Part shown: piece by piece, positions 60,710 to 62,849 of the stretch | Numbering within the stretch: position 1 is the stretch's first letter | Layout of the letters: the number at the start of each line of letters is the position of its first letter | NCBI RefSeq assembly: GCF_003427025.1 | Contig: NZ_QVAI01000001.1 | Location: 682,001 to 746,000 of the forward strand | Direction of reading: 5' to 3' | Origin: Jiangella endophytica | Lineage (GTDB): Bacteria; Actinomycetota; Actinomycetes; Jiangellales; Jiangellaceae | Length of the DNA: 64,000 nt | The notes under the pieces: generated by a model | What the model was told of the DNA's origin: nothing | Database searches by the model: none | What the model saw: the letters and a program-made list of their open reading frames with translations, nothing else | Translations under genes and position numbers: made by a program

Positions 60710-60768
60710 CGCCCACCGCCGCTAGCAGAAATCAAGGGGTTCCATGTGTACGGCAGACGACGAACGGC

Positions 60769-60774
60769 TAACGT
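60769..60774 (+). promoter_or_regulatory. Candidate -10 box of hpf
   Basis: TAACGT in GGCTAACGTTTG. It places the transcript start near 60781, exactly at the left arm of the folded leader. Confidence 0.5.
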
Positions 60775-60780
60775 TTGTTC

Positions 60781-60895
60781 ATGGCACCCATTGTCGATCC
60801 TCGACCCCACGAGGAGGGCCGGGTGCGAATCCCGGTGACGCGAGCGCATGGGTGCTGCTCGACCGTCTGTCCCCACGACGACCGGGAGGTTTCGA
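60781..60895 (+). ncRNA. Structured leader of hpf (candidate cis-regulatory RNA)
   Basis: An outer 8-bp stem GCACCCAT (60784-60791) / ATGGGTGC (60848-60855) closes a junction with two inner hairpins: TCCTCG / CGAGGA (60798-60803 with 60810-60815) and CCGGG / CCCGG (60819-60823 with 60831-60835), the latter with the 7-nt loop TGCGAAT. A further 3-bp helix CGC-GA-GCG follows. The ribosome site GGGAGGT (60884-60890) lies 29 nt after the structure. Such a compact junction right after a predicted start site is typical of regulatory leaders. It does not match a family I can name. Confidence 0.45.
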
Positions 60896-61534
60896 GTGGA
60901 TATTGTCATCAAGGGCCGTCACACGACCGTGCCGGAGCGGTTCCGTAACCACGTCGCGGAGAAGCTCTCCAAACTCGACAAGATCGGCCACAAGGTCATC
61001 CGCGTGGACGTCGAGATCACGGCCGAGGCCAACCCTCGACAGACCGACCAATCCGAGCGGGTCGAACTGACCTTGCACTCGAAGGGCCCGGTCATCCGGG
61101 CCGAGGCGGCCGCCGCCGATCGGTACGCCGCGCTCGACCTCGCCACGGACAAGCTGGTCGGACGGCTGCGCAAGGCCGCCGACCGCCGTCGAGTCCACCG
61201 TGGCAGCCGCACGCCGATCTCGGTTGCCGCTGCCACCGCCGGTCTCGACAGCGTCGGTGCCATCCCCGCGCAGGCGACCCCCACCGCCCCCATGGCCAAG
61301 GCCGTCACCGCGGTCGAGGAACCGCCTGACGCCTACGCCGTCCCCGACTCCGGCCCCATGGTGGTCCGTGAGAAGACGCACCGGGCCGAGCCCATGACGC
61401 TCGACCAGGCGCTCTACGAGATGGAGCTCGTCGGCCACGACTTCTACCTGTACGTCGACGCCGACTCCAAGATGCCCAGCGTCGTCTACCGGCGCCGCGG
61501 CTACGACTACGGCGTCATCAGGCTCGACGTCTGA
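60896..61534 (+). CDS. hpf: Ribosome hibernation promoting factor, long form
   Basis: A 212-residue protein from GTG 60896, 5 nt after GGGAGGT. The N-terminal domain (1-105) is the YfiA/HPF fold that sits in the 30S decoding channel: DIVIKGRHTTVPERFRNHVA, KLSKLDKIGHKVIRVDVEIT, AAAADRYAALDLATDKLVGR. A variable linker (Ala/Pro-rich) leads to the C-terminal dimerisation domain (about 155-212): EKTHRAEPMTLDQALYEMEL, GHDFYLYVDADSKMPSVVYR. This is the long form which pairs 70S ribosomes into 100S dimers in stationary phase. A strong hairpin follows the stop. Confidence 0.96.
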   Translation: MDIVIKGRHTTVPERFRNHVAEKLSKLDKIGHKVIRVDVEITAEANPRQTDQSERVELTLHSKGPVIRAEAAAADRYAALDLATDKLVGRLRKAADRRRVHRGSRTPISVAAATAGLDSVGAIPAQATPTAPMAKAVTAVEEPPDAYAVPDSGPMVVREKTHRAEPMTLDQALYEMELVGHDFYLYVDADSKMPSVVYRRRGYDYGVIRLDV

Positions 61535-61582: not shown

Positions 61583-61634
61583 ATCGTTCCACGGGCCGCC
61601 CGACCCTGTCGGTGCCCGCTGATAGCTTCGCGAG

Positions 61635-62849
61635 ATGGCTCGAGAGAAGCTGACGAACGCGGCGGCCCGGCGGGTGGCGCTCGCGGCCCAGGGGTTCGCC
61701 GACCCCCGGCCGCCGAGCCCCGACCGCCGCGCCATCCGCCGCGTGGTCGACCGCGTCGGCGTGGTGCAGATCGACTCCGTCAACGTGCTGTCGCGCTCGC
61801 ACTACCTGCCGTTCTTCAGCCGGCTCGGCCCCTACCCGCGCGCCGAGCTCGACCGTGCCGCCAACAAGTCGCCGCGCATGCTGTTCGAGTACTGGGCGCA
61901 CGAGGCGTCCATGCTCCCGGTCCGCACCCAGCCCTACCTGCGGGCCCGCATGGCCCGGGCCGACCAGCTCGCCTGGGGCGGCATCCGGCGCCTGGCCAGT
62001 GAGAAGCCCGAGTTCGTGGCCTGGGTGCTCGACGAGGTGAAGCGGCTCGGCCCGGTCACGGCCGGCGAGATCGAGCACGACGCCCCGCGCGAGAAGACGG
62101 ACTGGGGCTGGAACTGGTCCGAGGTCAAGACGGCGCTCGAGTACCTGTTCTGGTCCGGCGAGGTCACGGCGGCCGGCCGCAACGGCTCGTTCGCCCGGCT
62201 CTACGACATCCCCGAACGGGTGCTGCACCGCGACGTCCTCGCGGCGCCCACGCCGACGCCCGAAGAGTCGTTCCGCGAGCTGGTCCGCATCGCCGCCCGC
62301 GCCCACGGCGTCGGGTCCGAGCAGTGCCTGCGCGACTACTTCCGCATCTCCGTCGCCGGCGCCAAGACGGCCATCGCCGAGCTCGTCGACGCCGGTGAGC
62401 TGCTGCCGGTCACCGTCGAGGGCTGGAAACGTCCCGCCTACCTCCACCGCGACGCCCGCGTCCCGCGCCGGGTCGACGCCCGGGCGCTGCTGAGCCCGTT
62501 CGACTCGCTCATCTGGGAACGGGCCCGCACCGAGGCGCTGTTCGGCTTCCGCTACCGGCTGGAGATCTACGTCCCGCCCGACAAACGCGTGCACGGCTAC
62601 TACGTCCTGCCGTTCCTGCTCGGCGACGAACTCGTGGCCCGGGTCGACCTCAAGGCCGACCGGCAGGCAGGCGTGCTGCTGGTGCAGTCGGCGTGGGGAG
62701 AGCCCGGCTCACCGGCCGACACCCCCGACGAACTGGCCGACGAGCTGGTCTCGCTGGCCGGCTGGCTCGGCCTGTCCGGCGTCACGACCACCGGCCGCGG
62801 TGACCTCGCCGCTCCGGTGCAGGACGCGCTCGACCGCGCTGCCGCCTGA
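61635..62849 (+). CDS. YcaQ-like crosslink-repair DNA glycosylase (HTH_42 family)
   Basis: A 404-residue winged-helix protein from ATG 61635. The PF06224 family signature begins with [15 protein letters not shown], and the catalytic QxD motif of YcaQ/AlkZ-type glycosylases is present as [20 protein letters not shown]. Other family blocks are [34 protein letters not shown] and [40 protein letters not shown]. Such enzymes unhook interstrand DNA crosslinks made by natural alkylating agents. Full length. It has no close operon partners. Confidence 0.92.

What the first reader, a model, noticed from the sequence alone, without database searches (positions are those of the whole stretch)
60769..60895. 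Compact junction-like RNA leader in front of hpf
A predicted transcript start is followed immediately by an 8-bp closing stem with two internal hairpins, one with a 7-nt TGCGAAT loop resembling a tRNA T-loop, and then a ribosome site. The design resembles a small regulatory RNA or riboswitch. It would give direct control of ribosome hibernation. I know of no described hpf-linked motif with this layout.
Basis: partly seen in the sequence, partly recalled or inferred. Interest (0 to 1): 0.6.

Follow-up and report, generated by a model that had tools for sequence, protein, structure and literature searches.

The report
Leaderless mini-ORF starts hibernation-factor mRNA
The messenger RNA for a bacterial ribosome-hibernation protein appears to begin directly with a start codon for a tiny extra reading frame, folded into a small RNA junction, and many related bacteria without this fold keep the same leading start codon, so the number of working ribosomes might set how much hibernation protein is made.

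Summary
A -10-like box (60769-60774) is followed by an 8-9 bp closing stem with two hairpins, then the hpf ribosome site. Twenty of 21 Jiangellales hpf leaders share the block; compensatory changes exist, but are thin for the outer stem and pass only some controls. The T-loop is not conserved. No Rfam family matches; other actinobacteria carry the described raiA RNA before hpf.

The stronger signal was missed: the predicted transcript starts with AUG (60781), at leaderless spacing from the -10 box, in 21 of 21. Background regions show this spacing for real leaderless genes, not for unconnected ATGs (4 at 577 genes). Upstream of hpf it recurs: 28 of 30 loci in one family, 22 of 30 in one genus (all AUG-GCN-UGA or AUG-stop), 9 of 47 raiA-less (one probably chance) against 0 of 33 raiA-bearing regions class-wide. 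The AUG frame is preferentially closed before hpf (28 of 28, other frames 15 and 14; Jiangellales 18 of 21, others 7 and 4).

Best reading: a 5'-terminal AUG (leaderless uORF), here enclosed by a three-way junction, controlling hpf translation. Start site, 70S binding and direction of effect are unproven. New variant of a known kind.

The parts
60746..60751 (+). -35-like box GTGTAC (GTGTA[CT] in relatives), 17 nt before the -10 box
   Evidence: same box and spacing in 20 of 21 leaders; function inferred
60769..60774 (+). -10 box TAACGT
   Evidence: TAACGT in 20 of 21 leaders, TAGCGT in G013; promoter role inferred
60781..60783 (+). 5'-terminal AUG: predicted transcript start and leaderless upstream start codon
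   Evidence: ATG in 21 of 21, while each of the three bases before it differs in 2-4 of 21; spacing 6 nt (7 in G016) as for leaderless genes in the background
60781..60948 (+). upstream ORF of 55 codons in this genome, overlapping hpf; closed before hpf in 18 of the 20 relatives
60783..60791 (+). outer stem P1, 5' arm (GGCACCCAT)
60798..60815 (+). hairpin H1
   Evidence: changes on both sides in 3 of 6 pairs in alignment A4
60818..60836 (+). hairpin H2 with loop TGCGAAT; holds GGGTGC copy 1 (60821-60826), an alternative partner of the P1 5' arm
   Evidence: one pair longer on both arms in G016 and G018
60848..60856 (+). outer stem P1, 3' arm (ATGGGTGCT; GGGTGC copy 2)
60858..60864 (+). CTCGACC element, complementary to the SD flank and hpf start region (GG...CGAG)
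   Evidence: CTCGAC in 16 of 21 leaders; pairing predicted in several minimum folds
60884..60889 (+). Shine-Dalgarno GGGAGG of hpf
60896..61534 (+). hpf (long form; S30AE N- and C-terminal domains)
   Evidence: Pfam PF02482 and PF16321

Best explanation
The leader is a cis-acting translational control region of hpf whose core is a 5'-terminal AUG: the mRNA starts at the AUG of a short leaderless upstream ORF, and in Jiangellales the nucleotides right after that AUG form the closing stem of a three-way junction. By geometry a ribosome on the 5' AUG (toeprint about +15) and the closed stem (nt 3-11) exclude each other. Shown here: anatomy, conservation, leaderless spacing, enrichment at hpf, preferential closure of the uORF frame. 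Inferred: transcript start, 70S loading, activation rather than repression, feedback.
For: ATG at +1 in 21 of 21 leaders, 6 nt after the -10 box (7 in G016). In 790 kb of background (577 predicted genes) gene-starting in-frame ATGs peak at 6/7 nt after TA...T (27+7 at 197 hexamers), unconnected ATGs do not (3+1). Upstream of hpf unconnected ATGs do: 10 at 6 nt and 3 at 7 nt for 45 TA..[GA]T hexamers in 91 regions without a raiA-like pattern, 0-2 at each other spacing. 28 of 30 loci of family f31 and 22 of 30 of genus g29 against 2 of 235 other genes in the same loci plus six stretches. g29: AUG-GCN-UGA 17, AUG-stop 5 of 22, the layout of the start-stop mutants in PMC4965119. Frame of the AUG closed before hpf: f31 28 of 28 against 15 and 14 of 28; Jiangellales 18 of 21 against 7 and 4. 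Structure: 90.5% of cells paired against 47-54% when slid; 11 cells changed on both sides (0 of 500 shuffles). Literature: 5'-uAUGs bind 70S and can raise or lower the downstream gene (PMC4965119, passages); RafH, an HPF, would block leaderless mRNA recruitment (PMC10799931, passage).
Against: No transcript data: the start is inferred from -10 spacing. The uORF peptide is not conserved (7 to 35 codons where closed), and in this very genome, G012 and G015 the frame runs into hpf. Fold modelling gives no direction: blocking nt 1-16 changed SD accessibility up in 10, down in 4 of 21, and made the hpf start codon less accessible on average (0.49 to 0.28). Outer-stem covariation is thin: one pair with both sides changed in 5 of 18 distinct rows and unpaired in 8; for the whole structure two measures do not beat shuffles (pairs changed on both sides 45 of 500, further pair types 274 of 500); nothing beyond shuffles within the genus. 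A 5' stem is not a general feature: Fisher p 0.53 in f31, 1.0 in g29. With the looser hexamer TA...T the hpf regions also show a peak of 9 ATGs at 12 nt (and 28 [AG]TG at 5 nt, no ATG), not examined. Counts are not corrected for kinship.
Confidence: 0.5

Rival explanations
1. A ligand- or protein-binding three-way junction (riboswitch-like, or autogenous binding by HPF or a ribosomal protein) controls hpf; the AUG is incidental.
For: Three-way junction with some compensatory changes in Jiangellales, single site at hpf, alternative folds 0.3-5.3 kcal/mol apart in the 12 congeners.
Against: No Rfam match; loops and inner parts vary widely among genera, unlike an aptamer core; no second good match of the leader in its genome (next E 0.3); the AUG lies at the edge of the stem, is invariant, and recurs where no 5' stem is found.
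Confidence: 0.15
2. The 5' stem is a transcript stabiliser or a passive fold; the leader does not regulate translation.
For: The stem begins at nt 3 of the predicted transcript; single-sequence stability is ordinary.
Against: Does not account for the invariant AUG, the frame-specific closure or the start-stop ORFs in g29.
Confidence: 0.15
3. ATG(G) is conserved as part of the promoter or initially transcribed region of hpf, not as a start codon.
For: Most of the block from -14 to +9 is conserved in Jiangellales; start sites prefer purines (recalled).
Against: Background upstream regions show no such peak of unconnected ATGs; frame-specific stops; Ala-codon and stop-codon variation in g29.
Confidence: 0.15

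Closest known systems
5'-terminal AUG (5'-uAUG) mRNAs of E. coli such as ptrB, iscR, rcnR (PMC4965119; abstract and passages read)
   Same: SD-led gene whose mRNA also starts with AUG; short 5' uORF; natural g29 versions have the AUG-xxx-UGA layout made artificially there
   Different: Here conserved within several families and tied to one gene, hpf; in Jiangellales enclosed by a three-way junction; no experiment
raiA RNA / ModT (Rfam RF03072; PMC11706538, abstract and passages read)
   Same: Structured RNA upstream of hpf/raiA in actinobacteria; same locus position
   Different: Jiangellales leader is about 78 nt plus linker and has no model match; raiA-bearing regions lack the 5' AUG (0 of 33)
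raiA-hairpin RNA (RF03059)
   Same: Small RNA near hpf (one hit, L170)
   Different: No match in the window
Leaderless short ORFs and uORF/riboswitch combinations of mycobacteria (PMC4633059, PMC11260477; search listings and abstract starts only)
   Same: Leaderless or upstream ORFs in actinobacterial leaders
   Different: Other genes and signals, as far as the abstract starts show

Membership tests
raiA RNA (RF03072) | Match to the covariance model at gathering score | tested here: not met
   0 in window; 0 of 22 genomes of the order (its 14 control genomes also gave none, so weak on its own; the same family was found in other loci by cmscan)
raiA-hairpin (RF03059) | Match to the covariance model | tested here: not met
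Known riboswitch class | Match to any Rfam family | tested here: not met
   (only one sub-threshold hit, outside the element, to GRIK4_3p_UTR)
Riboswitch as a mechanism | Ligand binding changes gene expression | not testable with these tools
   none
tRNA-like T-loop | Conserved T-loop nucleotides in the 7-nt loop | tested here: not met
   loop varies in sequence and length; T-loop consensus recalled
5'-uAUG / leaderless uORF mRNA | AUG at the mRNA 5' end | tested here: inconclusive
   spacing to the -10 box as in leaderless genes in 21 of 21; transcript end not mapped
5'-uAUG / leaderless uORF mRNA | Downstream SD-led coding sequence | tested here: met
   GGGAGG 60884-60889 before hpf GTG
5'-uAUG / leaderless uORF mRNA | 70S binding at the AUG and effect on the downstream gene | not testable with these tools
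   none

The most novel reading that the evidence does not exclude
The leaderless AUG on hpf mRNA is a direct gauge of idle, initiation-competent 70S ribosomes: they alone can load there, loading opens the junction and licenses hpf synthesis, and HPF, by plugging those ribosomes, shuts off its own mRNA. Actinobacteria lacking raiA RNA would have evolved or kept this device repeatedly, in its smallest form as AUG-Ala-stop.
Probability: 0.25. Interest if true: 0.85.

Novelty: new variant of a known kind. Interest (0 to 1): 0.6.

Why it matters
How bacteria match the amount of hibernation factor to the number of idle ribosomes is, to my knowledge, poorly understood. A leader that begins with a start codon used by intact 70S ribosomes, on the gene whose product blocks those ribosomes, would give a simple self-limiting circuit and a natural function for 5'-terminal AUGs. 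The prediction is cheap to test by changing one codon.

Tried and rejected
Known RNA family: rejected. T-loop: rejected, loop not conserved. Degenerate raiA RNA: no model match; a short GGCCGGG-like resemblance was seen by eye and not pursued. rRNA mimicry or repeated aptamer: the leader has no second good match in its genome (next best E 0.3). Clean two-state switch freeing the SD: the two folds leave the SD about equally paired in this genome (0.35 against 0.31) and modelling of a bound ribosome gave no consistent direction. Conserved leader peptide: lengths and sequences differ, stop at codon 8 in two congeners. General 5' stem in other families: not supported, although a 12-leader mixed set gave Fisher p 0.008. 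Within-genus covariation: not above shuffles.

Rows set aside: G013 was left out of the multiple alignment, of model R1 and of A4, and gave no hit with R1. Two spurious rows of A3 were dropped by a stricter cut. In A4 the leaders of G019 and G020 (L017, L016) are aligned to GGGTGC copy 1. G014 has no hpf match. In one search raiA status was set by a loose sequence pattern (39 of the 80 class regions flagged); Rfam later gave 33 of 80, which one search uses. Three g29 loci with the AUG (L292, L295, L301) were flagged by that pattern but not by Rfam. Of the 9 class-wide hits, L228 lies in a frame that reads like phosphoribosyltransferase (comF-like) coding sequence and is probably chance; L204, L205 and L176 are genomes that also appear in the f31 and g29 sets. 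In one search 57 of 60 hpf genes were recognised and skipped; the background gene finder is a simple one of mine.

Full report
WHAT IS THERE. The gene downstream is a long-form hpf (PF02482 and PF16321), starting GTG at 60896. Before it lie an ORF resembling a phosphoribosyltransferase (PF00156, 24 bits, just under Pfam's cut-off; comF by recalled synteny) and one with LpqB-type domains. The 81 nt 60780-60860 fold as a three-way junction (-36 kcal/mol, z -1.67, 11 of 200 shuffles as good). With the downstream part included the minimum is another fold, in which GCACCC pairs with the GGGTGC inside hairpin 2 and CCCGGT of hairpin 2 pairs with the SD flank ACCGGG.

WHERE IT OCCURS. One relative (G017) has a contig of the same length, 50031, and the same leader as the record of Phytoactinopolyspora limicola, so the order is Jiangellales; the window's genus is not named by any search (Jiangella is my guess). 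A pattern from the conserved 5' block matched once in each of 19 of 22 genomes of the order, always at hpf (one mismatch allowed, none needed). With G016 (one-base insertion) and the more distant G013 there are 21 leaders from the 21 genomes with an hpf match; the 22nd, G014 (75% complete), has none. A covariance model of 12 congeners found the leader in all 8 other close loci (bits 16.5-39.4, E 4e-7 to 0.08) but not in G013; in whole genomes it found hpf in 16 of 22, plus 7 weak hits elsewhere at E 0.04-0.85.

STRUCTURE. Cut before the CTCGACC element, 19 of 21 leaders fold with the outer stem closed (G002 and G013 do not by that criterion); mean z -2.17, 12 of 21 at p below 0.05. On the model-fitted alignment A4 (20 rows, 18 distinct) 90.5% of cells pair, against 47-54% for slid partners; 11 cells show changes on both sides (0 of 500 shuffles) and the covariation score was reached by 6 of 500. 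Two other measures are not above shuffles: pairs with changes on both sides (5; 45 of 500) and further pair types (16; 274 of 500). Hairpin 1 has 3 of the 5 covarying pairs; hairpin 2 lengthens by one pair on both arms in G016 and G018. The outer stem has a nearly invariant core, one pair with A-U/G-C/C-G exchange (5 rows) that is unpaired in 8 rows, and G-U exchanges. In G018 it is re-registered into a longer stem, and in G013 a different stem GGCCACCCGG/CCGGGTGGTC sits right after the same AUG. Within the genus alone there is no covariation beyond shuffles. A gapless 5' stem as good as the real one is found in 0.2-23% of shuffles of the same leader. In the full-length free ensemble the outer stem is the minor form in 11 of 12 congeners; it is favoured in 5 of the other 9 leaders (G012, G016, G017, G018, G021).

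THE 5' AUG. The stem starts inside ATGGCACCC. ATG is present in 21 of 21, whereas each of the three bases before it differs in 2-4 of 21, and it lies 6 nt (7 in G016) after TAACGT, or TAGCGT in G013. I tested this spacing on 40 stretches (790,483 bases) of related genomes, 577 predicted genes: for 197 TA...T hexamers upstream of genes, ATGs that start the gene in frame lie at 6 nt (27) and 7 nt (7), with 0-2 at other spacings, so this is the spacing of leaderless genes here; ATGs not connected to the gene show 3 and 1, the level of other spacings. In 91 hpf upstream regions outside Jiangellales that lack a raiA-like pattern, ATGs peak at 6 (10) and 7 (3) for 45 TA..[GA]T hexamers, with 0-2 at other spacings; those whose translation I printed or tested are not in frame with hpf. 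With the looser hexamer TA...T there are 11 at 6 and 5 at 7, but also 9 ATGs at 12 nt and 28 [AG]TG at 5 nt, which I did not examine.

OTHER GROUPS. In family f31, 28 of 30 loci have it; in genus g29, 22 of 30. Other genes in the same loci plus six stretches: 2 of 235. In g29 the ORF is AUG-GCN-UGA in 17 and AUG-stop in 5 (UGA or UAA). None of 20 of these 60 loci searched has an Rfam match. In the class-wide sample of 80 regions, Rfam finds raiA RNA within 400 nt in 33; 0 of these and 9 of the other 47 have the 5' AUG, in 6 of 20 families. One of the 9 (L228, the only one of its family) is probably chance, and three or more belong to f31 and g29. The collections gave no names for f31 and g29.

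IS THE ORF REAL. In f31 the frame of the AUG is closed before hpf in 28 of 28, the other two frames in 15 and 14; in Jiangellales 18 of 21 against 7 and 4. Stop positions differ and peptides are mostly unlike, so selection seems to act on start and termination rather than on a peptide. Against this, in the window's own genome the frame runs 55 codons into hpf, and G012 and G015 also have no stop before hpf.

MECHANISM. Leaderless mRNAs are started mainly by intact 70S ribosomes (PMC9031893, passages). In E. coli, mRNAs with both a 5' AUG and an SD gene bind 70S at the 5' AUG and 30S at the SD; losing the AUG cut ptrB expression to under 8%, and a start-stop version restored 40%, while in other mRNAs loss of the AUG raised expression or did nothing (PMC4965119, passages). 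The natural g29 leaders have that start-stop layout. RafH, an HPF, would according to its structure block recruitment of leaderless mRNA (PMC10799931, one passage). I therefore propose that 70S loading at the 5' AUG competes with the outer stem and promotes hpf translation, closing a negative feedback. Only the mutual exclusion follows from the anatomy; direction and feedback are inference, and fold modelling does not decide (SD more open in 10, less in 4 of 21, start codon less open on average).

KNOWN OR NEW. Not raiA RNA, raiA-hairpin or any Rfam family. It looks like, and is probably, a 5'-uAUG/leaderless uORF system; membership is unproven until the 5' end is mapped. New would be the tie to hpf, its recurrence and the junction. 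Kinship was not corrected for, so the Fisher p-values printed overstate certainty; the number of lineages with the AUG (Jiangellales and five further families after leaving out L228) is the safer measure.

Noticed in passing
L311-L340 (family f31): 25 of 28 hpf leaders with the 5' AUG hold GGNGGTG, 12 the longer GGRGGTGRTG, in varying frames near the uORF end; it resembles an extended complement of the 16S rRNA 3' tail (recalled), mostly far from the hpf start, perhaps a ribosome-binding decoy.
   Followed up: partly
L281-L310 (genus g29): Minimal ORFs AUG-GCN-UGA or AUG-stop at the predicted 5' end of hpf mRNA, 37-57 nt before hpf, in 22 of 30 loci.
   Followed up: yes
window 61623-61637: The AlkZ-like glycosylase gene after hpf has TAGCTT-N6-ATG, a leaderless signature.
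   Followed up: no
window 60746-60751: GTGTA[CT] exactly 17 nt before TAACGT in 20 of 21 leaders; not a usual -35 box, the sigma factor or activator is unknown.
   Followed up: no
L069:1913-2173, L104:1907-2173: In two Nocardiopsis loci raiA RNA ends more than 300 bases before hpf instead of next to it.
   Followed up: no
L170:62-109: raiA-hairpin RNA (RF03059) upstream of an hpf of family f19.
   Followed up: no
window 60821-60826 and 60850-60855: Two copies of GGGTGC can pair with the same 5' arm GCACCC; in this genome the free fold prefers copy 1.
   Followed up: partly
hpf upstream regions: Peaks of [AG]TG at 5 nt (28) and of ATG at 12 nt (9) after TA...T among the 91 raiA-less regions, perhaps repeated sequences of related species.
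   Followed up: no
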